Shown piece after piece: positions 17 to 15,520 of a stretch of 33,498 bases of DNA. Location: the NCBI GenBank assembly GCA_947474815.1, contig CANJJU010000012.1:1-33498 (forward strand), given 5' to 3'. Numbering within the stretch: position 1 is the first letter of the stretch; every line of letters begins with the position of its first letter. Source of the stretch: Chitinophagaceae bacterium (GTDB lineage: Bacteria > Bacteroidota > Bacteroidia > Chitinophagales > Chitinophagaceae). The notes under the pieces are model-generated. The model saw only the letters and a list, made by a program, of their open reading frames with translations, searched no databases and was not told the origin of the DNA. The position numbers were made by a program, and so were the translations under genes.

Positions 17-90
17 CTCCCCCTGTTGGACTTGAACCAACGACCCTCTGATTAACAGTCAGATGCTCTAACCAACTGAGCTAAGGAGGA
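17..90 (-). tRNA. tRNA-Asn (anticodon GTT)
   Basis: The minus strand folds into a complete cloverleaf of 74 nt. The 7-bp acceptor stem pairs TCCTCCT with AGGGGGA and has one T-G wobble. The D arm contains AGCTCAGTTGGTTAGAG, the anticodon stem is TCTGA/TCAGA around loop CTGTTAA (anticodon GTT), and the T arm contains GGTTCAAGTCC. The discriminator base is G, as expected for tRNA-Asn. The CCA tail is not encoded (CCC follows), so it would be added after transcription. It lies downstream of the Rieske gene on the same strand but has its own strong promoter at 149-179. Confidence 0.95.
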
Positions 91-193: not shown

Positions 194-547
194 TCATAGC
201 CCAAAAAGACCTTTTTTTTCTTCAATACCCACAAATACTCCTTCTTTTCGCTCTTCTATCAAAAAAGTCTTTAAAAAATAACCCTCCCCACTTGTATTTC
301 GTCCATTTTCTACACTAAACTTATATCGATGCAGCGGACAAACAATATTACCCAATGGATCTACGTACCCCTCTGCCATTCTTCCCCCCGCATGCGGACA
401 TTTTGCAGCACAAGCATATAGCTTTTCATTAATAACGCTGATACAAATTTCTCTTCCGTTTACAGCAACTTCAGTTAATCCCTGGCTATCTGAGAATAAT
501 TCATGTCTGCTTTCGGAGATTTTATGCCAAACAATCTTTTCGTTCAA
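194..547 (-). CDS. Rieske [2Fe-2S] ferredoxin-like protein
   Basis: This 117-residue protein is a single Rieske domain of the small ferredoxin/NirD type. The cluster ligands are visible as C50-x-H52 and C70-x2-H73, with the conserved GG after the first histidine and an aromatic pattern after the second. It should be a soluble one-electron carrier, but the partner oxygenase or reductase is not in the window. The predicted start is TTG: the first codons TTG-AAC form the last unit of repeat array A, and no ATG precedes the conserved W7 in frame. It follows hflX on the same strand with 87 bases between them, so it is probably the last protein gene of the rimP-to-hflX unit. The domain call is firm; the physiological role is unknown. 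Confidence 0.85.
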   Translation of the reverse strand: MNEKIVWHKISESRHELFSDSQGLTEVAVNGREICISVINEKLYACAAKCPHAGGRMAEGYVDPLGNIVCPLHRYKFSVENGRNTSGEGYFLKTFLIEERKEGVFVGIEEKKGLFGL

Positions 548-548
548 T

Positions 549-632
549 GGTTCAAGGTTTAAGGTTTAACGTAAGCGTCCATAAATATTTATTAAGTAAA
601 CGTTGAACATTGAGCGTTAAACGTTGAACGTC
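549..632. repeat. Inverted array A of 7-bp GTTYAA units
   Basis: The left half reads GTTCAA-GGTTTAA-GGTTTAACG (about 550-572). The right half, about 599-630, has units CGTTGAA, CATTGAG, CGTTAAA, CGTTGAA. The two halves are approximate reverse complements around a roughly 27-base AT-rich centre, so the transcript could fold into a long imperfect hairpin. The unit period is 7 bases. The array fills the hflX/Rieske gap: it ends just before the hflX stop codon and runs into the Rieske TTG start. Function unknown. Confidence 0.75.
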
Positions 633-634
633 TA

Positions 635-1828
635 CTAGTAGAAAAATTCCGCCTTATACGGATATCTAATTTGATAAATATCTCTAACCTTATTTAAAAT
701 CGTTTGACGCAGCCCATCTAAATTAGTTCTTTCTGTTGCGGATACAAATACACAATTCCCTTTTGTTTCTTCTACCCAACGTTCTTTGAGTTCGCGTAAA
801 ATATCTTTTTTTACGTCTTCCTCCAGCCACTGATCAAAAGTTTGTTGTTCGTATTTATCCATCTTATTAAAAATAGTGATGGTAGGTTTTTCTGCCGATC
901 CCAATTCTGCTAAGGTTTTATTTACCACCGCCAATTGTTCTTCGTATTTGGCATGTGAAATGTCAACTACATGCAACAAGATATCTGCTTCTCTTACTTC
1001 ATCTAATGTACTCTTAAAGCTTTCTACCAAGTGGTGGGGCAATTTTCTAATAAACCCTACCGTATCGCTTAATAAAAAGGGAGTTTGTTCAAACACCACT
1101 TTTCGCGTAGTAGTATCGAGCGTAGCAAATAATTTATTTTCTGCAAACACTTCGCTCTTGCTCAATACATTCATAATGGTAGATTTACCAACATTGGTAT
1201 ACCCCACCAGGGCCACCCTGATAAATTCTCCCCGTTCTTTTCGCTGAGTGAAAGATTGTTTGTCTATTTCGGCTAATCGTTTGCGTAATAAAGTGATTTT
1301 ATCTTTTACTATACGGCGATCTGTTTCAATTTCTGTTTCACCCGGACCTCTCGTACCTACCCCGCCGCCCTGGCGCTCAAGATGTTTCCACATTCCTTTC
1401 AATCGGGGTAAAATATATTGATATTGTGCAAGCTCTACCTGCGTTTTAGCCTGTGCGGTTTTAGCTCTGCTCGCAAAAATATCTAGAATGAGATCGCTGC
1501 GATCAATTATTTTAATTTCTAGAATCTTTTCAATATTGATAATCTGAGAACCGGTTAATTCATCATCGAATATAACCATGGAAATATTCGCCTTTAATGC
1601 AATATAATTTTTGATTTCTTCCAGCTTACCCTTCCCCAGAAACGTTTTACTGTCGGGGTGTTTCATTTTTTGGGTGTAGCGCTTTATAGTAATAGCCCCG
1701 GCTGTTTCTGCAAGAAAAGATAACTCATCAAGATATTCGTTTATCTGCTGCTCCGTTTGATCTTTCTGAACAAGCCCTACGAGAATCGCATTCTCCTCTT
1801 TTCCTACTACTTTCTTTTTTTCAATCAC
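635..1828 (-). CDS. hflX: Ribosome-associated GTPase HflX
   Basis: HflX is a GTPase that binds the 50S ribosomal subunit and helps split or rescue stalled ribosomes. The 397-residue protein has the N-terminal HflX domain (about 15-150) and the signature GGGVGTRGPGETE at 154-166. Its G domain has Walker A GYTNVGKS (209-216), DTVGF (255-259) and NKMD (321-324). Length and motif order are normal for the family. The start codon is GTG at 1828; no better ATG lies just upstream, where repeat array B begins. It lies between surA and the Rieske gene, all on the minus strand, and both flanking gaps hold inverted repeat arrays. Confidence 0.95.
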   Translation of the reverse strand: MIEKKKVVGKEENAILVGLVQKDQTEQQINEYLDELSFLAETAGAITIKRYTQKMKHPDSKTFLGKGKLEEIKNYIALKANISMVIFDDELTGSQIINIEKILEIKIIDRSDLILDIFASRAKTAQAKTQVELAQYQYILPRLKGMWKHLERQGGGVGTRGPGETEIETDRRIVKDKITLLRKRLAEIDKQSFTQRKERGEFIRVALVGYTNVGKSTIMNVLSKSEVFAENKLFATLDTTTRKVVFEQTPFLLSDTVGFIRKLPHHLVESFKSTLDEVREADILLHVVDISHAKYEEQLAVVNKTLAELGSAEKPTITIFNKMDKYEQQTFDQWLEEDVKKDILRELKERWVEETKGNCVFVSATERTNLDGLRQTILNKVRDIYQIRYPYKAEFFY

Positions 1829-1837
1829 TTATTCTGT

Positions 1838-1911
1838 AAGTTTAAGAGTTTAAGAAGTTTAAGTCGTTTAACACGTTGACCGTTAAACCTTGAACATTAA
1901 ACCTCAAACAT
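1838..1911. repeat. Inverted array B of 8-9-bp GTTTAA units
   Basis: The left half (about 1838-1872) has AGTTTAAG, AGTTTAAG, AAGTTTAAG, TCGTTTAAC. The right half (about 1875-1910) has GTTGACC, GTTAAACC, TTGAACA, TTAAACC, TCAAAC, roughly the reverse complement. It fills nearly all of the surA/hflX gap, ending two bases from the surA stop codon. Same family as arrays A, C and D, with a longer unit period. Confidence 0.7.
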
Positions 1912-1912
1912 T

Positions 1913-3268
1913 CTACCTGCCCGCTGCAATCTCTACCCACAACTTCAAAGCAGCACAGGTTTTATATTCATCATCCAGCATAATATAGTAGTTCTTTACT
2001 TTGCTATCAAACCAAGTCTCTAACGCATTTTCCTTTTTTTGTTCCAATGCACGTTGAGATACTTTATTATAATCGTCTTTTAAGTTTTCGCGGTGGGGGG
2101 TTGTTTTGTTTTTTAAATAAATGATTCGCACACCTCTTTTTCCGCGTTCATCAGTATATTCTACCGGTTGAGAATACTCGCCTACTGCCAATTCTTTCCA
2201 CATCAGTACGATGTCTTTGTCCAACTGATCGATGGTTAAAAACGACCCGTCTCTTCCTTGTAACATACCACCTGTAAATTTACTGGCATCATCATCACTA
2301 TAGCGAGAAACCGCTGCACCAAAATCCATAGTGCCAGCAATTAGTTTTGCTCTTACAGAATCAAGTTTTTGAAATCCTTCTTTCATTTCCACTTGTGTAA
2401 CCTGTGGCACTTTTAATATATGCCTCACCACTGCATCGTCTCCTGCCCTGCTTACCAATTGAATGATATGGTAACCAAATTTTGTTTTAAATGGATTGGA
2501 TACTTGTCCGGGTTTTAACGTAAACGCTTTTGCAAGCCACACTGGATCTAAGTCTTTTTGATTTCTATTTACTTCGTACATCCCTCCCCGGTCTTTACTT
2601 CCCGGATCTTCCGAATAAATAGAGGCAAGCGTACCAAACTCTTTTTTGCCTGTTTGAATTTGATTTTTATAATCAAGCAGTTGCTCTTTGCAATACTCTT
2701 CTGCATCTCTGCTTGCTTTCGGATAAATAAGTACTTGTCCTATTTCCACTTCTGTTTCATAATAAGACAAACTATCCGTTGGAATCAAATCAAAATAAGA
2801 TTTTACTTCATTGGGAGTAATCTTAATGCCTTCAACAATTTTATTGCGCATTGCCGTTGCAAGCTTTTGATCTCTGATCCCATCTTTAAAATCTTCTTTT
2901 AATTGATACAGAGATTTTCCGGCCATTCTTTCTACTTCATCCTTTGAGCCATACTGTGAAATAAAATAACGAATGCGGTTATCAATATCAGCATCCACTT
3001 CTTCATCGGTTACAATGAGTGAATCTTTCTCGGCCTGTAATACCAATGCTTTAATACTCATGGCTTGTTGTAAACTCATGCATCTTGCATCGGGAGGCAA
3101 TTCTATTCCCTGGCGCTGCATATCCAGCAATGCATTATCAATATCACTTTTTAAAATAATTTTATTTCCTACAATGGCTATGATCTTATCCGCCACTATT
3201 TTTTTAGGCTGGGCGATTGCATTGAAGCATGCGATCAGAGAAAGTATTACTAAGGTATATTTTTTCAT
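1913..3268 (-). CDS. surA: SurA-like periplasmic peptidyl-prolyl isomerase/chaperone
   Basis: SurA-type proteins chaperone outer-membrane proteins through the periplasm. The 451-residue product starts with a signal peptide (residues 1-19, cut after AIA). A SurA N-terminal chaperone region follows (about 23-160, beginning DKIIAIVGNKIILKSDI). Then come two parvulin rotamase domains: one at about 174-275 ending FGYHIIQLVSR, and a more divergent one at about 282-388. ATG start at 3268. It lies between infB and hflX on the same strand, and the unusual arrays B and C flank it. AACCTTTG at 3290-3297 (minus strand, one mismatch to TAnnTTTG) may be an internal promoter. Assignment to the SurA/parvulin family is strong; orthology to E. 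coli SurA is inferred. Confidence 0.88.
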   Translation of the reverse strand: MKKYTLVILSLIACFNAIAQPKKIVADKIIAIVGNKIILKSDIDNALLDMQRQGIELPPDARCMSLQQAMSIKALVLQAEKDSLIVTDEEVDADIDNRIRYFISQYGSKDEVERMAGKSLYQLKEDFKDGIRDQKLATAMRNKIVEGIKITPNEVKSYFDLIPTDSLSYYETEVEIGQVLIYPKASRDAEEYCKEQLLDYKNQIQTGKKEFGTLASIYSEDPGSKDRGGMYEVNRNQKDLDPVWLAKAFTLKPGQVSNPFKTKFGYHIIQLVSRAGDDAVVRHILKVPQVTQVEMKEGFQKLDSVRAKLIAGTMDFGAAVSRYSDDDASKFTGGMLQGRDGSFLTIDQLDKDIVLMWKELAVGEYSQPVEYTDERGKRGVRIIYLKNKTTPHRENLKDDYNKVSQRALEQKKENALETWFDSKVKNYYIMLDDEYKTCAALKLWVEIAAGR

Positions 3269-3293
3269 AAATGTTATTTATTGCCGTTGCAAA

Positions 3294-3373
3294 GGTTTCA
3301 AGTGTTTCAACAGTTGAACAAGTTGGAAAATTAACCCATTAAACGTTTTAAACTTGTTAAACCTTTTAAACAT
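3294..3373. repeat. Inverted array C of about 9-bp GTTTCAA/TTTTAAAC units
   Basis: The left half (about 3294-3327) runs GTTTCAAGT, GTTTCAACA, GTTGAACAA, GTTGG. The right half (about 3331-3371) runs CATTAAACG, TTTTAAAC, TTGTTAAAC, CTTTTAAAC. The halves are degenerate reverse complements. It occupies the infB/surA gap. This is the most degenerate of the four arrays, and the call rests on its similarity to the others. Confidence 0.65.
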
Positions 3374-3380
3374 TGATTGT

Positions 3381-6152
3381 TTACAACGTTCTCTTCACTT
3401 CTACTTCCTCAAACGCTTCTACAATATCTCCTGCTTTTACATCATTGTAATTTCTGATAACCAATCCGCACTCCATTCCTGAAGTAACTTCTTTGGCATC
3501 ATCGCGGAAACGTTTCAAGCTAGCCAGTTCACCTGTAAAGATTACGATGCCATCGCGTACCAATCTGATACGGTTGTTTCTTGCAATCTTACCATCAAGT
3601 ACCTGACAACCAGCAACGGTTGCTTTATCAAAACGATAGGTTTCTCTAATTTCCACATTGGCCAATACTTTGTCTTCCACGGTGGGTTCAAGCATTCCTT
3701 CCATCGCACTTCTAATCTCTTCGATGGCGTTATAGATAATAGAGTACATTTTGATTTCGATAGATTCGCTTTCAGCCAATCTTGCTGCTTGCAAAGATGG
3801 GCGAACGTTGAATCCGATGATGATTGCATCAGACGCATTGGCAAGTGTAACATCACTTTCAGTAATAGCACCTACTGCTTTGTGAATCACTTTTACTACG
3901 ATTTCTTCTGTACTTAATTTTTGTAATGAATCACTCAATGCTTCTACCGATCCATCCACATCTCCTTTGATGATTACATTCAATTCTTTAAAGTTTCCTA
4001 ATGCCAAACGACGACCAATTTCATCGAGTGTAATATGTTTCTTCGCACGCATTCCTTGCTCACGCAAAATTTGTCCACGCTTATACGCAGTTTCTCTTGC
4101 GTCTGCTTCGTTTTCAAAAACCTTAAATGTTTCACCCGCCTGAGGCGCTCCGCTCAAACCGAGTAACAATACCGGTGTGGAAGGAGGTGCAACTTCAACG
4201 CGTTGATTACGCTCATTGTACATCGCTTTTACTTTACCAAAGTACTGACCAGATACGATCATGTCTCCCTGGCGAAGGGTGCCGTTTTGTACAAGAATGG
4301 TGGCTACATAACCACGGCCTTTATCCAACGATGCTTCAATAATGGTTCCCGAAGCTTGTTTGTTAGGATTGGCTTTTAATTCCAAAATGTCTGTTTCGAG
4401 TAATATTTTTTCCATCAGCAAATCAATGTTCATTCCTTTTCTTGCACTGATTTCTTGGCTTTGAAATTTACCCCCCCAGCTTTCCACCAAAATATTCATG
4501 GTAGACAACTGTTCTTTTATTTTTTCGGGATTCGCTCCGTCTTTATCAATTTTGTTGATGGCAAAAATCATTGGTACGCTAGCTGCTTGAGCATGCGAGA
4601 TGGCTTCTTTTGTTTGAGGCATTACTGCATCATCCGCTGCTACCACAATTACGGCAATATCAGTTACTTTGGCACCACGTGCACGCATAGCTGTAAAGGC
4701 TTCGTGACCTGGTGTATCTAAGAAAGTGATGGCACGGCCATCTTTTAAGGTTACCTCATAGGCCCCTATATGCTGTGTGATTCCACCTGCTTCTCCTGCA
4801 ATTACATTGGTATTTCTAATATAATCGAGCAAAGATGTTTTACCATGATCTACGTGACCCATGATCGTAACAATCGGTGGTCTTGGCACAAGATCTTCCG
4901 GATTGTCTTCTTCTTCATCAACTTCTAATTCTGCAGCATCGTCTACCCCTATAAATTCAACTTCATAATTAAATTCACTTGCTACCAATTCAATTACATC
5001 TGCCTCGAGGCGTTGGTTAATGGAAACCATGATGCCTAAATTCATACACTTGCTGATAATATCTGCAAAGCTCACATCCATCAAACCAGCCAATTCACTT
5101 ACAGAAATAAATTCTGTTACTTGTAATTTATTGCTTTCTACTCCAGCTTCCCCTAATTGGTCGGCCATTTCTTCGCGCTTCGCTTTACGATATTTCGCTT
5201 TCAAGCTTTTCCCACGACCACCTGCACCTGCAAGCTTGGCTTGTGTTTGCTTTAATTTTTCCTGAATTTCTTTTGCGTCAATTATTTTATCTTCTCTGCG
5301 TACAGGCGTTCCTGTTGAGGGGCGTTGAAAACGATTGCCTCCTTGCTGTCCTGGACGAGAGGGTCCACCAGGAGCTGTTTTATTGCCTCTTTGAGCAGGA
5401 TCTTGTTGGGCAGGCGTTCCTGCTTTTTTCTGAATAGGAATACGCTTGCGCTTTTGTCTGTCTTCGTTAGATTCTTTTTTAGGTCTGGTATCACTGTCAA
5501 CAGGAAGCGTAATTTTTCCAAGAATTTTTGGACCAGTAAGTTTTTCTGCCTGAATATTTTCAATGGTTGCAGGAACATCTTCTGCTACAGGCGGTTGAGG
5601 GGTTGCAATAACTTCTGCATCAGGAACCGCCTTCTTTTTAGTGTCGATTTCCTTTACTGGTTCAGCAGGTTCTTCTTTCTTTTTACCTTTTTTAGGTCTT
5701 GTAGAAGATTCGATAGAATCTAAATCAATTTTATCTAGCACTTTAGGTGCTTCTAATTCGGGTGCATCAATCTTAGTAATAGACGAAGCTTTTTTCTTCG
5801 CGGTGGCAGTTGTTTTTTCTTCTTCTGTTTCTGCTGGAGTGGCTGGCTTTTCTTCCGCCTTCTTAGGTTTTTCTTCTTTCTTCTTTATAGAAAGATCTTC
5901 CTCATCTCTTTTCTTTTTGCCTTCTCCGCCTGCATTTTTTGGAAGATCTAGCTGCGCAGCCTTTTGCTTATTGGCTTTGTCTTGCTGAAACTCCGACTGC
6001 AACACACGATACATTGATTCTGTGAGTTTAGACGTTGGCTTAAGATCGTCGACATTGAAACTTTTAGACACAAGGAACTCTATCAAGGTATGGGTACCTA
6101 TGTTAAACTCCTTGGCCGCAGCCATCAACCTTGGTGTATTTGCTTCTGACAT
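3381..6152 (-). CDS. infB: Translation initiation factor IF-2
   Basis: IF-2 is the GTPase that brings initiator tRNA to the 30S subunit and promotes subunit joining. The 923-residue protein has an N-terminal IF2_N helix-turn-helix-like segment (1-55). A long low-complexity region rich in K, E, P and A follows (about 58-330). A second IF2_N-type segment lies at about 345-400. The G domain has GHVDHGKT (432-439), DTPGH (479-483) and NKID (533-536), and is followed by the usual beta-barrel and IF2 C-terminal domains. ATG start at 6152. It is the third gene of a rimP-nusA-infB order that is widely conserved in bacteria. Confidence 0.97.
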
Positions 6153-6169
6153 TCTGTTTTTTTAGTGTT

Positions 6170-6184
6170 GCACCAAATTGGTGC
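6170..6184 (-). other. Short hairpin in the nusA-infB gap
   Basis: GCACC/GGTGC arms around AAATT (or 7 bp with a 1-base loop) lie 17 bases before the infB start codon. No T run follows on the minus strand, so it is not a plausible intrinsic terminator. It could affect infB translation, but this is weak evidence. Confidence 0.3.
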
Positions 6185-6219
6185 GGGAATATTTTATTTA
6201 ATTATTGCATTCAGAATAC

Positions 6220-7470
6220 TTATTCTTTTTCGAATTCTTCTTGCAATATTCTTCTGATATCGGTGATGGTTTCTTTTTCAAGATCTGTTCTGCGTTCTAA
6301 TTCTTCTGCAGTAAGATCTAATACAGAACGTGCTGTATCACAACCAACTCTTTTTAATTCATCAATAATCCATGCTTCAATTTCATCGCTAAATTCTTCC
6401 AAGTCAATATCAAATGAATCTTCTTCACCTTCATTGTCGCGGAATACATCTATTTCATATCCTGTCAATTCGCATGCTAATTTAATATTCGCCCCACGAC
6501 GACCAATGGCCAATGAAATTTGATCTGGTTTTAAATAAACCTTCGCATGAAGTTTTTCTGTATCCATGTCGATGCTGGTAATCTTCGCAGGTGTTAATGA
6601 ACGCTGAATCAACAATTGTGTGTTAGCCGTCCAGTTAATTACATCAATGTTTTCATTTTTAAGTTCTCTAACGATGCCATGTATACGACTTCCTTTCATC
6701 CCTACACAAGCTCCTACGGGATCAATTCTGTCATCATAGCTTTCTACTGCTACTTTGGCTCTTTCTCCTGGATCTCTTACTATTTTCTTCACCACGATTA
6801 ATCCGTCAAATATTTCAGGAACTTCAATCTCTAATAGTTTTTCAAGGAATGAAGGGCTGGTACGTGACAATATAATAATCGCTTGATTGTTTTTTAACTC
6901 AACTTTTCTTACCACCGCGCGAATGGTTTCTCCCTTTTTGAAATAATCGCTGGGAATTTGTTCAGATTTTGGAAGCAACATTTCATTGCCATCTTCATCA
7001 AGAATCAATACTTCTTTTTTCCATACCTGATATACTTCACCACTCACGATTTCGCCAATGCGCTCTTCGTATTTCTTAATAAGAATATTCTTTTTAAGAT
7101 CATTGATACGTGCAGCCAATGTTTGCTTTCCAGCCAATATAGCCCTGCGTCCAAACTCTTTTTGAATATCAACTTCTTCATACAATTCTTCTCCCACCTG
7201 ATAATCAGGCTCAATTTTAATTGCATTTTTATATTCAATCTCTGTAAGGGTATTGTACAAATCATCGTCATCAACGATGGTACGTCTTCTAAAGATTTCT
7301 AAATCACCTTTCTGGTCATTTACGATAACGTCGAAGTTTTCATCACTGCCGTATTTTTTACGAATCAATGTTTTAAAAACATCTTCCATTACTTTCATCA
7401 GGGTTGGACGATCAATGTTTTCTGCGTCTTTGAACTCCTGAAACGATTCAATCAAGTTAATGCTTGCCAT
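6220..7470 (-). CDS. nusA: Transcription elongation/termination factor NusA
   Basis: NusA binds RNA polymerase and modulates pausing, termination and antitermination. With the ATG at 7470 the protein has 416 residues and begins MASINLIESF, a typical Bacteroidota NusA N-terminus. A TTG eight codons upstream is open but not needed. The order is: N-terminal polymerase-binding domain (1-125), S1 domain (about 138-200), KH1 with GACVGMKGSRI (about 252-262), KH2 with AIGRRGANIKLA (about 321-332), and an acidic C-terminal helical tail (about 352-416). It sits between rimP and infB. NusA is a candidate regulator of the hairpin in the rimP leader. Confidence 0.96.
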   Translation of the reverse strand: MASINLIESFQEFKDAENIDRPTLMKVMEDVFKTLIRKKYGSDENFDVIVNDQKGDLEIFRRRTIVDDDDLYNTLTEIEYKNAIKIEPDYQVGEELYEEVDIQKEFGRRAILAGKQTLAARINDLKKNILIKKYEERIGEIVSGEVYQVWKKEVLILDEDGNEMLLPKSEQIPSDYFKKGETIRAVVRKVELKNNQAIIILSRTSPSFLEKLLEIEVPEIFDGLIVVKKIVRDPGERAKVAVESYDDRIDPVGACVGMKGSRIHGIVRELKNENIDVINWTANTQLLIQRSLTPAKITSIDMDTEKLHAKVYLKPDQISLAIGRRGANIKLACELTGYEIDVFRDNEGEEDSFDIDLEEFSDEIEAWIIDELKRVGCDTARSVLDLTAEELERRTDLEKETITDIRRILQEEFEKE

Positions 7471-7530
7471 ATTCCACTTCGGCTTTTCTCCCAAATTTTG
7501 GGACCCTGCCGACAGGGGGGTTTGTGTTAA

Positions 7531-7995
7531 TTAAAATTTTATCAGAACTTTTGTTTGTTTTATATCTGTAAAAGGAATTGACAATTGGTGCAATACTGCT
7601 TTTTTGCCTTTCCCTTCAGTAAACTCAATGGTAATGTTGTATTCATCAGCAGCAATCAACTTGCCTTCTTTTTTAGTGCTATCATTCATCGTTACTTCTA
7701 CATTCCGGTCAATATTCTTAATGTATTGTCTGTGTAATTTGAATGGCTCTTCGGTACCCGGACTAGACACCTCCAAAGAAAAATCTCCATCGGGATACAT
7801 GCCCATTTCCTCCATTTGCTTATAAAGCGCCCTGTTTATTTTAATGCACTTCTCAATTCCCAGGCCACCATCCGCATCCAAGTAAATTTTGAAATTATTG
7901 ATGGGTTTTACCTTGATTTCCACCAAAAAAATATCCCCTTCCAGCAAAGGAGTCAATAATTTTTTTACGATTTCTATTTGTGTTTCGTTGCTCAT
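7531..7995 (-). CDS. rimP: Ribosome maturation factor RimP
   Basis: RimP assists maturation of the 30S ribosomal subunit. The reading frame is open further upstream to 8124, but the ATG at 7995 gives a 154-residue protein beginning MSNETQIEIV. That is the normal family length, and the upstream part would run through the promoter and leader hairpin. An N-terminal domain with SLEVSSPGTEEPF (the family's conserved S-P-G region) is followed by a C-terminal SH3-like barrel (about 75-150). It heads the minus-strand block and is followed by nusA after 60 bases. Confidence 0.92.
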   Translation of the reverse strand: MSNETQIEIVKKLLTPLLEGDIFLVEIKVKPINNFKIYLDADGGLGIEKCIKINRALYKQMEEMGMYPDGDFSLEVSSPGTEEPFKLHRQYIKNIDRNVEVTMNDSTKKEGKLIAADEYNITIEFTEGKGKKAVLHQLSIPFTDIKQTKVLIKF

Positions 7996-8010
7996 GGTAT
8001 TAAAAAAGAA

Positions 8011-8034
8011 GAAGGGAACGATTTCGTTCCCTTC
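8011..8034 (-). terminator. Perfect hairpin plus T-rich run in the rimP leader (candidate attenuator)
   Basis: GAAGGGAACGA pairs perfectly with TCGTTCCCTTC over 11 bp; realistically this is 10 bp with a 4-base loop. On the minus strand it is followed immediately by TTCTTTTTT, then the rimP ATG 16 bases after the stem. Stem, GC-rich half and T-rich run fit an intrinsic terminator. Because it lies between the rimP promoter and the rimP start, it would act as an attenuator rather than an operon end. No alternative antiterminator fold was identified by eye. Confidence 0.6.
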
Positions 8035-8056
8035 CATTTCACTCTTATTTCGAATA

Positions 8057-8088
8057 CAAAGATATGAAAACTTGCGCAATAAGCGAAA
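8057..8088 (-). promoter_or_regulatory. Candidate promoter for the rimP-nusA-infB unit
   Basis: On the minus strand TATCTTTG (8057-8064) is a perfect TAnnTTTG box. TTTC lies 20 bases upstream (8085-8088), one mismatch from TTTG. Transcription would begin about 55-60 bases before the rimP ATG and would include the leader hairpin at 8011-8034. Confidence 0.6.
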
Positions 8089-8140
8089 AGATCTCTTTGG
8101 GTTGACACAAAATTTAACAATCAAATTATACGGGCAGTAC

Positions 8141-8148
8141 TACCTTTG
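8141..8148 (+). promoter_or_regulatory. TACCTTTG promoter box, 4 bases before a start codon
   Basis: A perfect TAnnTTTG element ends at 8148 and the ATG of the next gene begins at 8153. The upstream element is poor: no TTTG at 19-21 bases. If the box is used, the mRNA would have essentially no 5' leader. Confidence 0.45.
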
Positions 8149-8152
8149 CCTT

Positions 8153-8389
8153 ATGTTTAAATTCATTCTAGAGCTCATTCTTTTTTATTTTCTATACAAA
8201 TTTGTGTTTGAATTCATCATACCTATATATAATGCTACCAAGCATGTGAAGCAAAAAATGGGTGAAATGCAAGAAAAAATGGAGAAAAAAAGCCCCCAAA
8301 AGACCCACACACCCAATAAATCTGCTGAAAAAACAGGTTTTTCAGATCAATTGAGTAGCGAATACATTGATTTTGAAGAAGTTAAGTAA
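8153..8389 (+). CDS. Small membrane-anchored protein (DUF4834-like)
   Basis: The 78-residue protein has one hydrophobic segment at residues 2-24 (FKFILELILFYFLYKFVFEF). A charged, lysine-rich stretch KQKMGEMQEKMEKK and an acidic tail ending EYIDFEEVK follow. The frame is open back to 7889, but that part would be antisense to rimP; the ATG at 8153 lies just after a TACCTTTG box. The layout (N-terminal anchor, KxxMxEMQxK helix, acidic end) resembles the small Bacteroidota DUF4834 proteins. That assignment is from memory and not verified. It is divergent from rimP. Function unknown. Confidence 0.65.
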   Translation: MFKFILELILFYFLYKFVFEFIIPIYNATKHVKQKMGEMQEKMEKKSPQKTHTPNKSAEKTGFSDQLSSEYIDFEEVK

Positions 8390-8456
8390 TTTTTCTTCCT
8401 GCACCTTCCAAAAACCCCTTTTTCTGCCTATAATTTTTTCTGAAAAATATACAACA

Positions 8457-8478
8457 AAAACTAATAAGCGTTAGTTTT
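8457..8478. promoter_or_regulatory. Perfect inverted repeat over the tetR promoter (candidate operator)
   Basis: AAAACTAA (8457-8464) and TTAGTTTT (8471-8478) are perfect reverse complements separated by 6 bases. The right arm overlaps the promoter box TAGTTTTG (8472-8479) and lies 9 bases before the tetR ATG. A dyad in this position is the expected design for autorepression by a TetR-family protein. No second copy was seen before paaE. Confidence 0.6.
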
Positions 8479-8479
8479 G
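8472..8479 (+). promoter_or_regulatory. TAGTTTTG promoter box of tetR/paa
   Basis: A perfect TAnnTTTG element ends 8 bases before the ATG at 8488. No TTTG is found 19-21 bases upstream. It may serve the tetR gene and, by readthrough, the paa genes, because no other clear promoter precedes paaE. Confidence 0.5.
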
Positions 8480-8487
8480 TGGTCTGT

Positions 8488-9078
8488 ATGTCTAAAATTG
8501 TAGTTTCAGCTAACGGCTCCAAAAAAGAAGCCATCATCAAAAAAGCCGCAGGCCTTTTTCGTCAAAAGGGATTTGCCGGAACGTCTATGCGAGAGCTTGC
8601 CGAAAGCATAGGGGTAGAAGCACCCAGTTTATACAATCATATCGGATCTAAAATTGAATTGCTGCAGAACATTTGCTTTAAGGTAGCCAATGAATTTATG
8701 CTGCACCTACATGAAACCGAACAACAATCAAATAGCACGATTGGTAAATTAAAACAGATCATTCAGTTTCATATTCAAATGATGGTGAATGAATACGATG
8801 AAGTGTTTGTAGCTAACCATGAATGGAAACAACTGAAGGACCCCTACTTAACAGATTTTCTGCTTCAGCGAAAAGCTTATGAAAAAAAATTAATTGATAT
8901 CGTGAAGGAAGGAATAAAAACTAACACCATTAAAAATATTCATCCGCAAATTGCGGTGCTTACTATTTTATCAGCCGTGAGAGGATTGGAATTCTGGCAA
9001 GGGCAGAAAAATCAGATGGAGGTACTGGAATTAGAAAAAAATATGATTGACCACCTGTTAAACGGACTGGTGAAATAA
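8488..9078 (+). CDS. TetR-family regulator, probably of the paa cluster
   Basis: The 196-residue protein has an N-terminal TetR helix-turn-helix (about residues 12-58). It contains GTSMRELAESIGVEAPSLYN and then HIGSKIELL, the usual end of the DNA-binding domain. The C-terminal ligand-binding half is helical and not diagnostic. The ATG at 8488 is preferred over a GTG three codons earlier because the GTG overlaps the promoter box. It is the first gene of the plus-strand paa cluster, 31 bases before paaE. By analogy with PaaR of other bacteria it may respond to phenylacetyl-CoA; this is inference from position. The inverted repeat at 8457-8478 is its likely operator. Confidence 0.85.
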   Translation: MSKIVVSANGSKKEAIIKKAAGLFRQKGFAGTSMRELAESIGVEAPSLYNHIGSKIELLQNICFKVANEFMLHLHETEQQSNSTIGKLKQIIQFHIQMMVNEYDEVFVANHEWKQLKDPYLTDFLLQRKAYEKKLIDIVKEGIKTNTIKNIHPQIAVLTILSAVRGLEFWQGQKNQMEVLELEKNMIDHLLNGLVK

Positions 9079-9109
9079 TTTCTACATTTAAAATATACAA
9101 TCAAATAAT

Positions 9110-10189
9110 ATGTCGATTCATTTTCATTCTTTAAAAATAAAAAGCATTCAAAAGGAAACAACTGATTGCGTATCGGTTTGTTTTGACATACCCTCTTCTT
9201 TGCAGAAAGATTTTACATTTAAAGAAGGACAAAATATCACCATAAAAAAATCAATCAATGGCGAAGAAGTAAGAAGATCGTATTCAATTTGCAACGCGCC
9301 ACATGAAAAAGAATTAAAAGTGGCTATTAAAAAAGTGGAAGGGGGATTGTTTTCACAATTCGCGAATGATATTTTAACCACTGCCGACATTCTTGAAGTA
9401 ATGCCTCCTTCTGGAAAATTCAATGCGCATTTGTCAAAAAATGGAAAAGGAAATTACCTCGCTATTGCAGCAGGAAGTGGCATTACACCTATCTTATCTA
9501 TTATTAAACACACATTAACTACAGAGCCCGATAGCGAGTTTACATTAGTATATGGAAATAAAAATCGTAGCTCAATTATATTTTTTGATGAACTAGAAGG
9601 ATTGAAAAATAAATTCATTGAGCGATTTACATTTATCAATGTATTGAGTAAAGAAAAAACAGACACCCCTGTTTTTTATGGAAGAATCGATGAACAAAAA
9701 CTAGCAGACCTTACAAAAATAATTGATTACTCAAAAATTGATGCAGCCTATCTGTGCGGACCCGAATCAATGATATTTGCTGGTAAAGATTTTTTAGAGA
9801 AAAATGGAGTGGCGCAAACAAACATACATTTTGAATTGTTTAATACTCCCGGTTATAAACAAACGAAGAAAGTAGAAAACAAAAAAATAGACAATATTAC
9901 TGGTCCAAAAAGCAACGTCACCATTAAGCTGGATGGAAGATCTTTTTCATTTGAGCTCGCATATGGTGGACAAAATATTTTAGACGCTGCATTGCAGCAA
10001 GGAGCAGATTTACCTTACGCATGTAAAGGGGGTGTTTGTTGTACCTGTAGAGCCAAAATAACCGAAGGGGAAGTATCAATGGATGTAAATTATGCTTTGG
10101 AACCCGAAGAGATTGCACAAGGCTTTGTGCTGACTTGTCAGTCTCATCCCACCACAGAAAAAGTAATGATTGATTTTGATGTAAAATAA
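9110..10189 (+). CDS. paaE: Phenylacetyl-CoA epoxidase reductase subunit PaaE
   Basis: PaaE passes electrons from NADPH through FAD and a [2Fe-2S] cluster to the PaaA di-iron site. The 359 residues show the ferredoxin-NADP reductase fold: FAD motif RRSYSICN (55-62), nucleotide site AAGSGITPI (120-128) and CGPESM (216-221). A C-terminal plant-type ferredoxin domain (about 268-357) has cluster cysteines C305, C310, C313 and C343. Length and domain order match PaaE. It lies first among the structural genes, ahead of paaA, instead of after paaD as in E. coli. Confidence 0.94.
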
Positions 10190-10212
10190 AATTACCTATT
10201 AAAAATAAACAA

Positions 10213-11160
10213 ATGGAAATATATAATCTAGAGAAAGCCTTTCAGGAAAAGATAGACAAAGAAATTAAAATTGAACCAAAGGATTGGATGCCTGAAGCTT
10301 ATCGTAAAACCAACCTTCGACAAATCAGTCAGCATGCTCACAGCGAAATTGTAGGCATGTTACCAGAAGGAAACTGGATAAGCAGAGCGCCCTCGCTAAA
10401 AAGAAAAGCCATTCTTATTGCAAAAGTGCAGGATGAAGCTGGGCATGGATTGTATTTGTATTCTTCTGCAGAAACCTTGGGCACGAGCAGAGAACAAATG
10501 ATTGATGATTTGCACAGTGGCAAAGCAAAATATTCTTCGATTTTTAATTATCCCACATTAACCTGGGCTGATATGGGCGCCGTAGGCTGGTTGGTAGATG
10601 GGGCGGCTATTTTAAATCAAGTGATGCTTTGCAGAACTTCTTATGGCCCCTACGCTAGAGCGATGGTGCGCATATGCAAGGAAGAAAGTTTCCATCAGCG
10701 TCAAGGTTTTGATGCATTGTTGGTGTTGAGCAAAGGAACCGAAGAACAAAAAGCAATGTGCCAAGATGCCATCAACAGATGGTGGTGGCCAAGCTTAATG
10801 ATGTTTGGACCAAAAGACAGCGAAAGCACGAACAGCGACCAAAGCATGAAATGGAAAATTAAACGAAAAACAAATGATGAGCTGCGTCAAAATTTTGTAG
10901 ACATGATTGCTGAGCAAATAAAATTATTGGGGATGACATTGCCAGATCCTGATTTAAAATGGAACGAAGCAAAAAAGCAATATGATTTTGGCGAAATAAA
11001 CTGGGATGAATTTTGGAATGTAGTAAAAGGAAATGGTCCTTGCAATAAACAAAGAATAGCAGCAAGACGCAAAGCCCACGAAGAAGGAGAATGGGTAAGA
11101 GCTGCCGCGTTGGCGTATGCCGAAAAGAAACAATTAAGAACAAAAGCTAAGGTAGCTTAG
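10213..11160 (+). CDS. paaA: Phenylacetyl-CoA epoxidase catalytic subunit PaaA
   Basis: PaaA holds the di-iron centre that epoxidises the aromatic ring of phenylacetyl-CoA. The 315-residue protein is all-helical, with the expected ligands: E45, E75 and H78 in DEAGH, D129, and E158 with H161 in EESFH. The [11 protein letters not shown] stretch at 190-200 is typical of PaaA. It starts 23 bases after paaE and ends 29 bases before paaB. It needs PaaC for stability and PaaB and PaaE for activity. Confidence 0.96.
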
Positions 11161-11189
11161 CTAATTTATAATTATTAATACACGCAATC

Positions 11190-11555
11190 ATGAATACTCC
11201 AATCAGAAAATTTTATTACGGCGATATCCCCGAAGAAAATACAGGCGGATCAATCAATGCTATTTCATCCAATGAAAAAGCCTGGCCGCTATGGGAAGTT
11301 TTTATTCGCAGCAAACAAGGACTAGACCACAAACATGTAGGAAGCCTACATGCGGCAGATGCTACCATGGCAATTGAAAATGCAAGAGATGTTTACACCC
11401 GACGTCAGGAAGGCATAAGTATCTGGGTAGTAGAAAGTAAATTTATTCACGCGAGCGACCCCGCAGATGCAGAAAGCCTCTACGAACCAGCAGCAGATAA
11501 AATTTATCGTCATCCAACTTTTTATGATTTACCCGATGCGGTGAAGCATATGTAA
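11190..11555 (+). CDS. paaB: Phenylacetyl-CoA epoxidase subunit PaaB
   Basis: PaaB is a small structural subunit that bridges the PaaA-PaaC core and is needed for activity. The 121-residue protein contains the family core WEVFIRSKQGLDHKHVGSLH (about 32-51), followed by ARDVYTRRQEGISIWVV. It is longer than the E. coli protein at its N-terminus (about 25 extra residues). It is followed by the unusual 107-base gap that contains repeat array D, whereas the other gaps in the cluster are about 10-35 bases. Confidence 0.94.
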   Translation: MNTPIRKFYYGDIPEENTGGSINAISSNEKAWPLWEVFIRSKQGLDHKHVGSLHAADATMAIENARDVYTRRQEGISIWVVESKFIHASDPADAESLYEPAADKIYRHPTFYDLPDAVKHM

Positions 11556-11560
11556 AAAAG

Positions 11561-11662
11561 GCTCAACGTTTAAGGTTCAACGTTTAAAGTGGATGTACTT
11601 ATATGAGTATCCATTTTTGTTGAGTGTTAAACGTTACACCTTAAACCTTAAACATATTAAAC
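11561..11662. repeat. Inverted array D between paaB and paaC (long hairpin)
   Basis: This is the best preserved array. Left units: CGTTTAA, GGTTCAA, CGTTTAA (period 7). The 20 bases at 11568-11587 are complementary to 11627-11646 at 18 of 20 positions. At the apex, GGAT..ACT (11591-11599) can pair with AGTATCC (11606-11612). The right half continues TTAAACC, TTAAACA, TATTAAAC up to the paaC ATG. The transcript should form a long stem-loop within the paa operon. Confidence 0.8.
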
Positions 11663-12406
11663 ATGCCCCATACAAAAAACGCTCTCTCCTTCACCCTGCA
11701 CCTAGCAGACACCGCACTTATCCTTGCTCAACGCAATGGAGAATGGTGTGCTCATGGGCCTATATTAGAACAAGATATTGCCATTACTAATATTACATTA
11801 GACCTTATTGGTCAAGCACGAAATTTTTATCAATATGCTGCTAGGTTACACGAAGCGAATGAGAATGCTGTTACGGAAGATAGCCTTGCCTATCTGCGCA
11901 CGGAAGGACAATTTAAAAATTTATTGATTTGCGAATTACCTAATGGAGACTGGGCACAAACTATATTGAGACAATTTTTCTTCAGTACATTTCAAATGTT
12001 ATTGTTTGAAAAAATGAAACAATCCAATAATACTCAGTGGGTAGCTATTGCAGAAAAATCAATTAAAGAGACGCACTATCACGTAAAATGGAGCAGCGAA
12101 TGGGTAATACGATTGGGTGATGGAACAACAGAAAGCCATGATCGAATTACAAAAGCCCTGGATACCCTTTGGATGTACACGGGAGAATTTTTTATTCCTG
12201 CCTCTTATGAAATGATAGAGGTTACTGCTCTTAAAAATGAATGGATGAATAAGGTGAAGGAAGTTTTTGATGAAGCCACACTCACTATACCAGAAAATGT
12301 TTTTATGCAAACGGGAGGAAAAAATGGAGTGCATACAGAAAACCTGGGTTTTGTATTAACAGAGTTACAATATTTACAAAGAGTGTTTCCGGGTGCTGAA
12401 TGGTAA
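11663..12406 (+). CDS. paaC: Phenylacetyl-CoA epoxidase structural subunit PaaC
   Basis: PaaC is the non-catalytic ferritin-like partner of PaaA. The 247 residues include the family features LHLADTALILAQRNGEW (about 12-28), LDLIGQARNFYQYA (about 46-59) and the helix KETHYHVKWSSEWVIRLGDG near the middle. Length is normal. The ATG lies directly at the end of repeat array D (TTAAACATG), so translation begins at the foot of a predicted stem-loop. It is followed by paaD after 12 bases. Confidence 0.94.
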   Translation: MPHTKNALSFTLHLADTALILAQRNGEWCAHGPILEQDIAITNITLDLIGQARNFYQYAARLHEANENAVTEDSLAYLRTEGQFKNLLICELPNGDWAQTILRQFFFSTFQMLLFEKMKQSNNTQWVAIAEKSIKETHYHVKWSSEWVIRLGDGTTESHDRITKALDTLWMYTGEFFIPASYEMIEVTALKNEWMNKVKEVFDEATLTIPENVFMQTGGKNGVHTENLGFVLTELQYLQRVFPGAEW

Positions 12407-12418
12407 AATAATAAATCA

Positions 12419-12916
12419 TTGAACAACAATAAAGACCATATCTACTCAATTCTTCAAGAAGTCTGCGATCCAGAGGTGCCCGTATTAACGATACTGGATC
12501 TTGGCATTGTAAGAGATATTCAATTTCATGAAGAGGAAGTAGAAATAATCATCACTCCTACTTATTCGGGATGCCCCGCAATGGATGCGATTAGTGTGGA
12601 TATTAAATTGAAATTAATAGAACAGGGTTTTAAAAAAGTTAAAGTAAGTTATGTATTGTCGCCCGCCTGGACAACCGATTGGATGAGTGAAGAAGGAAAA
12701 AAGAAATTGCAAGCATATGGAATTGCTCCACCACAAAAAATTACAAACAATACAAGACTTCATAAAATGTTGTTTGAAGAAGAAGGTCATATTGAATGTC
12801 CCCAATGTCATTCCCTGAATACCAAAATGCTAAGTCAATTTGGATCTACGGCATGCAAAGCACTCTACCAATGCAACGATTGTAAAGAGCCTTTCGATTA
12901 TTTTAAATGCCATTAA
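12419..12916 (+). CDS. paaD: PaaD, assembly factor of phenylacetyl-CoA epoxidase
   Basis: PaaD is a DUF59/MIP18-type protein thought to help assemble the iron centre of the epoxidase. The 165-residue protein has an N-terminal MIP18 domain (about 7-85) with VCDPEVPVLTILDLGIVRDI and TPTYSGCPAMD. A C-terminal zinc ribbon follows with CPQC (about 124-127) and CNDC (about 150-153). The start codon is TTG at 12419; no ATG lies before the conserved domain, and the spacing to paaC (12 bases) fits. It is the last gene of the epoxidase set, followed by the mgtC-like gene. Confidence 0.92.
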   Translation: MNNNKDHIYSILQEVCDPEVPVLTILDLGIVRDIQFHEEEVEIIITPTYSGCPAMDAISVDIKLKLIEQGFKKVKVSYVLSPAWTTDWMSEEGKKKLQAYGIAPPQKITNNTRLHKMLFEEEGHIECPQCHSLNTKMLSQFGSTACKALYQCNDCKEPFDYFKCH

Positions 12917-12922
12917 TATTGT

Positions 12923-12930
12923 TAACTTTA
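12923..12930 (+). promoter_or_regulatory. Possible promoter box before the mgtC-like gene
   Basis: TAACTTTA matches TAnnTTTG at all but the last base and ends 20 bases before the ATG at 12951. No clear TTTG is found upstream. If real, the mgtC-like gene could be expressed separately from the paa genes. Confidence 0.25.
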
Positions 12931-12950
12931 TTCCCATTCAACTTATACGC

Positions 12951-13595
12951 ATGAACATATCCATTTATTTCGAAGAAGCTGCGCAGATTTCAGTAGCATT
13001 TGTTATTGGTGCTATTATTGGATTAGAAAGAGAATTTAGAAGCAAGCCTGCCGGTTTTAGAACAATGATTTTAATATCTGTTGGCTCTTGTCTATACACT
13101 ATTTTATCAAAAGAAATTTCGGGAGGCGGTGCCGCAGATCGTATTGCTAGCAATATTGTTACAGGAATAGGTTTTATTGGTGCGGGAGTAATTTTTAAAG
13201 AAGGAATATCTGTAAACGGATTAACTACCGCCGCGCTGATATGGGTTACAGCTGCGTTGGGAATGGCAATTGGTTATCATAATTATCCAATAGCAATCGT
13301 AGTGAGCACCATTGTGGTTATTACATTATTTGTATTAGAACCCGTTCAGCGATTTATAAATAAGTTTCACAAAGTGAAAGATTATAAAATCCGTACCATT
13401 CAATTGGGAAATAATTTTAAAACTGAACTGGAACATTTTTTTAACTCACATGAGCTGTCATACAGGTGCATGAAAATGGTAAAAGAAAACAATGATGCAG
13501 TATACATGTATCGAATCAGCTCACCCGACAGAAACTATGATCTAGTAAATCAATTTTTACTGGCACACCAAGAAGTGAAAAGTTTTGATGTATAA
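12951..13595 (+). CDS. MgtC/SapB-family membrane protein
   Basis: The 214-residue protein has the MgtC/SapB membrane domain (about 10-130). Transmembrane segments lie near 10-25, 38-53, 65-83, 92-107 and 112-130, and the signature motifs are GAIIGLEREFRSKPAGFRT (20-38) and GIGFIGAGVIFKEG. A C-terminal cytoplasmic domain (about 145-214) follows. The frame is open back to 12840, but this would overlap paaD; the ATG at 12951 starts just before the first membrane helix. MgtC relatives are linked to magnesium limitation, membrane potential or acid stress. A role in phenylacetate breakdown is not known, so its place inside the paa cluster is odd. Confidence 0.85.
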   Translation: MNISIYFEEAAQISVAFVIGAIIGLEREFRSKPAGFRTMILISVGSCLYTILSKEISGGGAADRIASNIVTGIGFIGAGVIFKEGISVNGLTTAALIWVTAALGMAIGYHNYPIAIVVSTIVVITLFVLEPVQRFINKFHKVKDYKIRTIQLGNNFKTELEHFFNSHELSYRCMKMVKENNDAVYMYRISSPDRNYDLVNQFLLAHQEVKSFDV

Positions 13596-13628
13596 TCATT
13601 AGTTAATAGCAATTAAAAAACATTTACC

Positions 13629-15460: not shown

Positions 15461-15492
15461 ATTTTTCGACAATCTGCTGCTTTTCAAAACAA

Positions 15493-15520
15493 CTCATCAA
15501 CTCAACAACTCAACAACTAA
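15493..15520. repeat. 8-bp tandem repeat upstream of obgE
   Basis: CTCATCAA, CTCAACAA, CTCAACAA, CTAA: three full units with period 8, ending three bases before the TACCTTTG promoter box. It resembles the other short-period intergenic arrays in style but has no inverted half. Confidence 0.7.

What the first reader, a model, noticed from the sequence alone, without database searches (positions are those of the whole stretch)
549..11662. A family of intra-operonic inverted arrays made of 7-9-bp GTTNAA units
Four intergenic gaps (549-632, 1838-1911, 3294-3373, 11561-11662) hold the same kind of non-coding structure. Degenerate short-period units (CGTTTAA, GGTTCAA, GTTTAAG and variants) fill the left half, and their reverse complements fill the right half. 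Every copy lies between co-directional genes, three in consecutive gaps, and each nearly fills its gap. The period is constant within an array (7 in A and D, 8-9 in B and C) while the sequence drifts, so these are not simple copies of one element. They could be a REP/MITE-like selfish repeat, slippage-generated hairpins kept for mRNA processing or stability, or protein-binding arrays. I know no named family with this architecture.
Basis: partly seen in the sequence, partly recalled or inferred. Interest (0 to 1): 0.8.

Follow-up and report, generated by a model that had tools for sequence, protein, structure and literature searches.

The report
Short-repeat hairpin elements between operon genes
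Facing rows of 7-9-letter repeats that fill gaps between bacterial genes look like the arms of a widespread hairpin element that often carries a small gene (S23) of unknown role, which offers one testable explanation for two unsolved features of bacterial genomes.

Summary
Four gaps hold facing arrays of degenerate 7-9-bp units (GTTNAA type). The genome has 34 exact period-7 triplets against 0 in the reversed-pattern control. Paired arms keep one order, GTTNAA first. A sister genome has one 7-bp unit fewer in gaps A and B.

The likely identity came from relatives. At the paaB-paaC gap (array D) two close kin have ORF-less arms, and four other relatives have an S23/23S_rRNA_IVP gene (PF05635) between facing arms. 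In the genus, IVP genes have arrays on both sides in 26 of 58 loci, against 1 of 202 control genes. Left and right arms of a locus match, with a different unit per locus (6 of 6 testable loci in one genome). Similar arms flank IVP genes in 8 of 16 plasmid loci from other phyla, one inside a 23S rRNA gene. One array of this genome is an IVP element that lost most of its gene.

Best reading: ORF-less, mRNA-borne relatives of rRNA intervening sequences. RNase III excision and spread by S23 are inferred. Facing heptamer pairs are published for Xanthomonas (PMC4692102).

The parts
542..569 (+). array A, left arm (GTTCAAT GGTTCAAG GTTTAAG GTTTAA)
596..629 (-). array A, right arm (period 7, reads GTTNAA on the - strand); one 7-bp unit more than in sister genome G058
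1840..1877 (+). array B, left arm, period 8-9
1883..1912 (-). array B, right arm, period 7; gap B has 7 bp more than in G058
3286..3327 (+). array C, left arm, period mostly 9
3331..3371 (-). array C, right arm, period 8-9; the middle of this gap keeps TTAATTTT, which I read as the remains of a surA promoter (recalled Bacteroidota -7 motif)
11561..11587 (+). array D, left arm, period 7
11588..11619 (.). array D, loop; by eye alike in G058 and G066 (GTGGATRYACTTAT..GTAT)
11620..11662 (-). array D, right arm, ends at the paaC start codon
194..547 (-). Rieske-domain protein gene, flanks array A (TTG start uncertain)
635..1828 (-). hflX-like GTPase gene, between arrays A and B
1913..3268 (-). surA-like peptidyl-prolyl isomerase gene, between arrays B and C
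3381..6152 (-). infB (translation initiation factor IF2), upstream of array C; named from the translated sequence, not from a family scan
11190..11555 (+). paaB, upstream of array D
11663..12406 (+). paaC, downstream of array D
15488..15518 (-). single-arm 8-bp array (GTTGAGTT family, C-rich strand next to the right-hand gene)

Best explanation
The four arrays are ORF-less members of a family of intercistronic intervening-sequence (IVS-like) elements. An element has a G-rich arm of degenerate 7-9-bp units just after one gene, a loop, and a complementary C-rich arm just before the next gene. Complete members carry an S23/IVP four-helix-bundle gene in the loop, usually in the sense direction of the operon; short members, as in this window, have lost it or never had it. 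In the message the arms can pair in many registers into a double-stranded stem (supported by predicted folds and by arm matching). By analogy with the 23S rRNA IVS, I infer that an RNase III-type nuclease cuts this stem, so that the element is tolerated inside operons. Arms grow and shrink by unit slippage (7-bp steps seen in two arrays). S23 binding to the arms and its role in spread are inferred.
For: (1) IVP genes in the genus: arrays on both sides in 26 of 58 loci and on either side in 49 of 58, against 1 and 30 of 202 control genes (p 1e-18 and 5e-23). (2) Left arm matches the reverse complement of the right arm of the same locus: own score 33.3 against 16.9 swapped (43 of 52 loci testable, 25 with rank under 0.05, p 2e-8); in G130 6 of 6 testable loci rank under 0.05, each with its own unit; G061 3 of 4, G018 2 of 4. 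(3) IVP ORFs are co-directional with both neighbours in 64 of 74 loci, against 140 of 372 control genes. (4) Arm-to-arm pairs in the predicted fold: median 23 against 4 in controls (61 and 80 loci). (5) At the gap of array D, four relatives hold IVP plus arms (arms judged by eye) and own, G058 and G066 hold arms only, while 14 of 28 measured relatives have 17-50 nt. (6) Own contig C56: IVP 7349-7660 lies between arms 7263-7289 and 7799-7832 of the same GTTTAA unit. (7) In the same contig, gap 9289-9476 is an element that lacks 357 nt, about 320 of them IVP gene, relative to G058; flanks are 98-99% identical. (8) In Azospirillum the same kind of arms lie inside 23S rRNA around an S23 ORF. (9) Coxiella 23S IVS: strain-variable heptamers upstream of S23, with an RNase III cut at the first repeat (PMC4990558, passages).
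Against: A PF05635 search of this genome finds nothing in the window, and tblastn finds no IVP in the 109 infB/surA-neighbourhood loci L110-L218. Within a genome, native arms pair no better than arms swapped between GTTNAA arrays (38 arm pairs, p 0.34-0.97). No compensatory double change in D between the two sisters: 23 pairs same, 5 changed on one side, 6 broken. Hairpins A and B are weaker in the sister and C is unchanged; only D keeps its stability despite 28 substitutions (1 of 500 random mutants as stable). ORF-less arrays also occur in convergent and divergent gaps. 5 of 12 other gaps in the first 32 IVP loci also held an array, and the control genes come mostly from other genomes or regions. 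8 of 16 plasmid IVP loci show no arm match. Genomes rich in GTTNAA arrays have an IVP with a GTTNAA flank in 8 of 9 cases against 4 of 8 for poor genomes, p 0.13. No RNA data. Mobility was not observed.
Confidence: 0.57

Rival explanations
1. Neutral slippage products: short units arise by polymerase slippage and template switching in non-coding gaps and persist because nothing selects against them; the facing order comes from hairpin-templated copying.
For: 7-bp unit differences between sisters in two arrays; period 7-9 is the general rule in intergenic DNA of the family, with nothing at 4, 5, 6, 10 or 13; arms of one array can differ in period (8 of 46 pairs); native arms pair no better than swapped ones.
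Against: One arm order: 63 overlapping matches in 10 of 93 genomes against 1 match in 1 of 93. Strong link to IVP genes and sense orientation. Similar arms in four phyla around the same gene, including one rRNA case. One shared unit across a genome is hard to get from independent local slippage.
Confidence: 0.2
2. RNA processing or stability hairpins with a host function (3'-end protection, differential expression within operons), independent of any element.
For: Arrays lie close to gene edges (median 11 nt); they are commoner in co-directional and convergent than in divergent gaps, though not significantly (41 of 632, 7 of 89, 6 of 184; p 0.11 and 0.13); D keeps its folding energy under heavy substitution.
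Against: Not conserved at one orthologous operon: the paaB-paaC gap is 17-50 nt in 14 of 28 measured relatives. Present in divergent gaps too. No U-tract after the arms of A-D.
Confidence: 0.12
3. Binding arrays for a sequence-specific DNA- or RNA-binding host protein.
For: Tandem short units of one kind within a genome; strict facing order.
Against: The unit differs between genomes and between elements of one genome while the architecture stays; the unit is not enriched outside arrays; neighbours in the window are unrelated housekeeping and catabolic genes.
Confidence: 0.06
4. REP/BIME- or MITE-like elements moved by a transposase.
For: Dispersed, mostly intergenic, palindromic, many copies.
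Against: Copies share no fixed palindrome or terminal sequence; loops and arm lengths differ between copies. A REP-associated or other transposase was not searched for.
Confidence: 0.05

Closest known systems
23S rRNA intervening sequences (IVS) with S23/IVP ORF (Coxiella, Leptospira, Alphaproteobacteria; PMC4990558, abstract and passages seen)
   Same: Complementary arms around a loop; S23/IVP ORF in the sense direction in complete members; heptamer units of variable number in the Coxiella IVS; same kind of arms around S23 in an Azospirillum 23S gene found here.
   Different: Here the elements lie between protein genes, not in rRNA; the arms are long degenerate 7-9-bp arrays; most array loci seen in this genome lack the ORF (two IVP genes); RNase III cutting is not shown.
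Xanthomonas GGGAATC and Nostoc GGGGAYT heptamer arrays (Rehm et al. 2015, PMC4692102; abstract, passages and sections 10, 13, 14 and 16 read)
   Same: Degenerate heptamers, intergenic, facing pairs in fixed order (70 in Xcc), next to ORF ends and mostly between co-directional genes, unit number varies while position is kept.
   Different: Units there have GGG runs and were studied as G-quadruplexes; GTTTAAG units have at most GG at unit junctions, so GGG-type quadruplexes cannot be the general cause. No link to S23/IVP was made in the parts read. X. campestris does encode a homologue (PDB 2gsc).
TAACTGA direct repeats of Beggiatoaceae, Cyanobacteria and Bacteroidetes (PMC4679880, abstract, passages and sections 12 and 24 read)
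   Same: Intergenic heptamers near gene ends, patchy across phyla including Bacteroidetes.
   Different: Direct repeats of one exact unit, one inverted case in the main genome; no arms or loop.
REP/BIME elements (recalled, plus search listing only)
   Same: Intergenic palindromes in many copies.
   Different: No conserved palindrome; arms are tandem arrays.

Membership tests
23S rRNA IVS / S23-IVP element | complementary terminal arms enclosing a loop | tested here: met
   A-D arms; IVP loci arm match
23S rRNA IVS / S23-IVP element | S23/IVP ORF in the loop (ORF-less members exist in rRNA, recalled) | tested here: not met
   absent from A-D; present between arms in C56 of the same genome and at the D gap in four relatives
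23S rRNA IVS / S23-IVP element | location inside 23S rRNA | tested here: not met
   A-D lie between protein genes; only a tRNA reaches an Rfam threshold in the window. So they are called IVS-like, not 23S IVS
23S rRNA IVS / S23-IVP element | excision by RNase III | not testable with these tools
   no RNA data
Rehm-type convergent heptamer arrays | heptamer unit, intergenic, facing pairs in one order near ORF ends | tested here: met
Rehm-type convergent heptamer arrays | G-quadruplex-forming unit with GGG runs | tested here: not met
   read from the sequence: units of A-D have no GGG run, only GG at some junctions; no quadruplex prediction was run
REP/BIME | conserved short palindrome shared by copies | tested here: not met
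   copies share a unit only
REP/BIME | REP-associated tyrosine transposase in the genome | not tested
MITE | fixed terminal inverted repeats across copies | tested here: not met
MITE | target-site duplication | not tested
   no empty/filled pair was examined for it
intrinsic terminator | stem followed by a U-tract | tested here: not met
   read from the sequence after the A-D arms

The most novel reading that the evidence does not exclude
S23/IVP elements are a cross-phylum class of RNA-level intercistronic elements. Their arms are degenerate 7-9-bp arrays (G-rich 5', C-rich 3'), the S23 pentamer acts on those arms, and most unexplained convergent heptamer arrays of bacteria (Bacteroidota, Xanthomonas, Nostoc) are their ORF-less offspring, moved or maintained in trans. 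The G-rich 5' arm may double as the ribosome-binding leader of S23, which would explain the fixed arm order.
Probability: 0.33. Interest if true: 0.9.

Novelty: new variant of a known kind. Interest (0 to 1): 0.76.

Why it matters
The papers seen here leave the role of S23/IVP proteins and the reason for intergenic heptamer arrays open. Tying the two together makes both testable: the arms predict where S23 should bind and where the message should be cut. It also shows that the facing heptamer architecture does not need GGG-type quadruplexes, and it gives a likely identity to many unannotated hairpins between operon genes in Bacteroidota.

Tried and rejected
Uptake-sequence idea (dispersed single motifs): rejected, the unit is not enriched outside arrays.

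Arm order as a mere constraint of 5' leaders: not enough, because convergent array gaps show it too (left half 16 G-rich to 6 C-rich, right half 4 to 13, p 0.004), while non-array convergent gaps do not (p 0.68). But part of the bias in co-directional gaps may be a leader effect, since non-array co-directional gaps are C-rich on the right as well (118 G-rich to 261 C-rich; left 181 to 202), and non-array divergent gaps are skewed; the few divergent array gaps show no order.

Arms as exact copies of each other: no, native arms pair no better than swapped arms of the same genome. The first version of this script merged arms and was replaced.

Terminators: no U-tract. Rfam: only a tRNA in the window.

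Own-genome match of the abundant unit with a cognate IVP: suggestive only (p 0.13 by genome, 0.05 by locus).

A paper on a 16S intervening sequence (PMC5041132, abstract and passages) proved unrelated.
Full report
WHAT IS THERE. The window is contig C12 of a 1.9-Mb draft genome. The nearest named relative by IF2 protein (98%) is a Chitinophagaceae MAG, isolate Jr-16oct17-140. Four gaps hold facing arrays of degenerate 7-9-bp units: a GTTNAA-type arm on the left and its reverse complement on the right. The flanking genes are Rieske-like/hflX (A), hflX/surA (B), surA/infB (C) and paaB/paaC (D). In 637,477 bases of this genome 45 arrays reach 20 bits, against a mean of 0 in two dinucleotide shuffles. 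The exact triplet pattern occurs 34 times against 0 for the reversed pattern, and the period-9 pattern 13 times against 0. Of 40 resolved arrays one overlaps a predicted ORF, which is doubtful; in relative G061 two of the array clusters examined lie inside a predicted ORF. The unit is not enriched outside arrays. A and D are period 7, C is mostly 9, and B has an 8-9-bp left arm and a 7-bp right arm, so the claim of a constant period within an array fails for B.

ORDER AND PERIOD. Across 93 genomes of the genus, the order GTT-first/AAC-last gives 63 overlapping matches in 10 genomes; the opposite order gives 1 match in 1 genome. The strict pattern misses this genome's own arrays. In own-genome DNA held, neighbouring arms are 14 facing, 3 same-way, 0 opposite; in G058 7, 6 and 0. 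In the window and 80 named relatives, intergenic periodic segments occur at periods 7, 8, 9 and 14 (13, 10, 16, 23), with 0 at 4, 5, 6, 10 and 13, 3 at 11 and 5 at 12; the shuffled control gave 0 or 1 per period, and coding DNA, scaled, 0.1, 0.1, 2.2 and 0.8 at 7, 8, 9 and 14 but 7.6 at 12. Many of these arrays have other units (GTTGAGTC, GGTTTGT, CTATGAG, CTGGATA). For these too the left part of the gap is G-rich and the right part C-rich (32 to 13 and 7 to 27, p 1e-5, exact duplicates removed, orthologues not). After removing similar gaps the rule holds in co-directional (p 8e-8) and convergent gaps (p 0.004), not in the few divergent ones; non-array co-directional gaps have a weaker bias of the same sense. 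So the architecture is kept while the letters are not.

EVOLUTION. In a sister genome (G058; SurA 96%, HflX 99%), 11 of 30 array clusters had an orthologue in the DNA held. Gap A and gap B are each 7 bp shorter there (with 1 and 7 substitutions); one array is 63 bp shorter, two differ by 2 and 9 bp, and six (C and D among them) have the same length. In D, 28 substitutions leave the folding energy at -31.3 (own -31.8), against -18.2 +/- 3.3 for random mutants (1 of 500 as stable). A (0.93), B (0.73) and C (0.61) show no such effect. There are no compensatory double changes in D. Arms of one array pair no better than arms swapped between arrays of the same genome. A precise hairpin is therefore not what is kept; at most the general ability of the arms to pair.

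THE LINK. The gap of array D was measured in 28 relatives (29 best PaaC loci fetched, of 71 genomes with a match). In 14 of 28 it is 17-50 nt. Own, G058 and G066 have arms plus a similar loop; a few others have array-like pieces. G012 and G068 have about 520 nt with an IVP ORF (PF05635; for G012, tblastn for G068). With G054 and G009 there are four relatives with an IVP gene between facing arms, judged by eye, in exactly this gap; in G014 an IVP lies in front of paaB instead. The own genome has two IVP genes. One sits in contig C56 between arms 7263-7289 and 7799-7832 with the same GTTTAA unit as the ORF-less arrays. In the next gap of that contig, G058 has a complete IVP element, while this genome lacks 357 nt of it (about 320 of the 393-nt ORF) and keeps the end of the gene, the 3' arm and part of the 5' arm, with flanks 98-99% identical. 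So an ORF-less form can arise by loss of the gene; this is shown for one locus and not for A-D.

CONTROLS. 86 of 90 genus genomes have IVP, and 0 of 14 control genomes. In 32 loci picked by IVP score alone, arrays were found left in 17, right in 16 and on both sides in 9; left arrays are G-rich 17 to 1, right ones C-rich 16 to 1; 5 of 12 other gaps in those loci also held an array. With a larger set (86 loci fetched, from array-rich and array-poor genomes; 74 usable, 58 with both flanks long enough; several per genome), arrays lie on both sides in 26 of 58 against 1 of 202 control genes; IVP is co-directional with both neighbours in 64 of 74 against 140 of 372. Left against reverse-complement right: 22 of 58 exceed the 99th percentile of swapped pairs, against 5 of 150 controls. 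Within G130 each of 6 testable IVP loci (of 8 fetched; one of the other two shows no clear arms) has its own unit and its own matching arms; G061 3 of 4 and G018 2 of 4. Predicted folds pair arm with arm (median 23 against 4 pairs, 61 and 80 loci). Control genes come from a simple ORF caller run on the own genome, G058, G061 and named relatives, so some are not real genes and most are not from the IVP genomes.

OTHER PHYLA. tblastn against plasmids finds 29 records, 27 of them cyanobacteria by name. I read 16 of the 29. Left and right match in 8 of 16 (rank at or below 0.03: Pseudanabaena, Picosynechococcus between cas10 and cmr3, Geminocystis, two Nostoc, Stanieria, Azospirillum, Gemmatirosa); the other 8 do not stand out (0.23-0.57); over all, 30.8 against 14.9 swapped, p 0.0005; two of the 16 are close copies. 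The Azospirillum copy lies inside a 23S rRNA gene (Rfam LSU match 286-3333 spanning it), so the intercistronic elements and a true 23S IVS share arms of one kind. IVP genes in cas operons are in print (PMC3936711, passages). PDB relatives are 2gsc (Xanthomonas campestris) and 2rld. A weak match to the retroelement protein Avd (5.9e-5, below its cut-off) agrees with published structural likeness (PMC10053308, passages).

PRINT. Rehm et al. (PMC4692102; sections 10, 13, 14, 16) describe the same facing architecture with GGGAATC in Xanthomonas and study it as G-quadruplexes; units here lack the GGG runs. The Coxiella IVS paper (PMC4990558, abstract and passages) reports strain-variable heptamers before S23 and RNase III cutting at the first repeat. 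I found no paper that joins facing heptamer arrays to S23/IVP elements between protein genes. The searches were made, open-access full text only.

MECHANISM, MARKED. Shown: arrays, order, 7-bp length steps in two arrays, IVP-arm association, arm matching, sense orientation, one gene-loss form, one rRNA case. Inferred: the stem forms in the message; RNase III or a similar enzyme cuts it; the cut makes insertion in operons tolerable; S23 acts on the arms; the ORF-less copies that share one unit spread in trans. The last point has only weak support.

VERDICT. A real, unusual feature. It is most likely an ORF-less, mRNA-borne variant of the IVS kind, with heptamer arms as the shared signature.

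Noticed in passing
window 15488-15518: Single C-rich arm of an 8-bp family (AACAACTC) directly before the gene at 15537, also present in G058 (L255); no left arm seen in that gap.
   Followed up: partly
window, L050 (G000:C56), and the 35 stretches L031-L065: Arrays are clustered: four loci in 11 kb of the window and six in 7 kb of C56, while 19 of 35 stretches of this genome have none. No cause found.
   Followed up: no
L051 (G000:C67) 9524-9740 and L054 (G000:C110) 3789-3962: Two contig ends carry the same locus with different left arms (about 10 units against about 3), which suggests two versions of one array in the population or an assembly break at the array.
   Followed up: partly
L289 (G061:C5) 6422-13964: Four consecutive gaps between similar-sized (788-814 aa) co-directional genes hold similar array elements, which looks like gene plus element duplicated in tandem.
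   Followed up: no
L428, L432, L436: S23/IVP genes between cas genes (cas6/cas4, cas10/cmr3) on cyanobacterial plasmids, with matching arms in L428 and L432 but not in L436.
   Followed up: partly
gap C in relatives (L117, L119, L124, L148): A conserved TTTTGTTAAAT-N-TTAATTTTGG stretch, probably the surA promoter, sits beside the arms; arms change while it stays.
   Followed up: no
L325/L446 (G066:C116 about 2866-3443): The only opposite-order match of the genus lies next to an IVP gene in a complex multi-arm array.
   Followed up: no
L174: A record titled Streptomyces griseus holds an IF2 83% identical to the window's and the same infB-surA-hflX order; probably a mislabelled MAG.
   Followed up: no
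window 17-90: tRNA gene on the - strand (Rfam RF00005).
   Followed up: no
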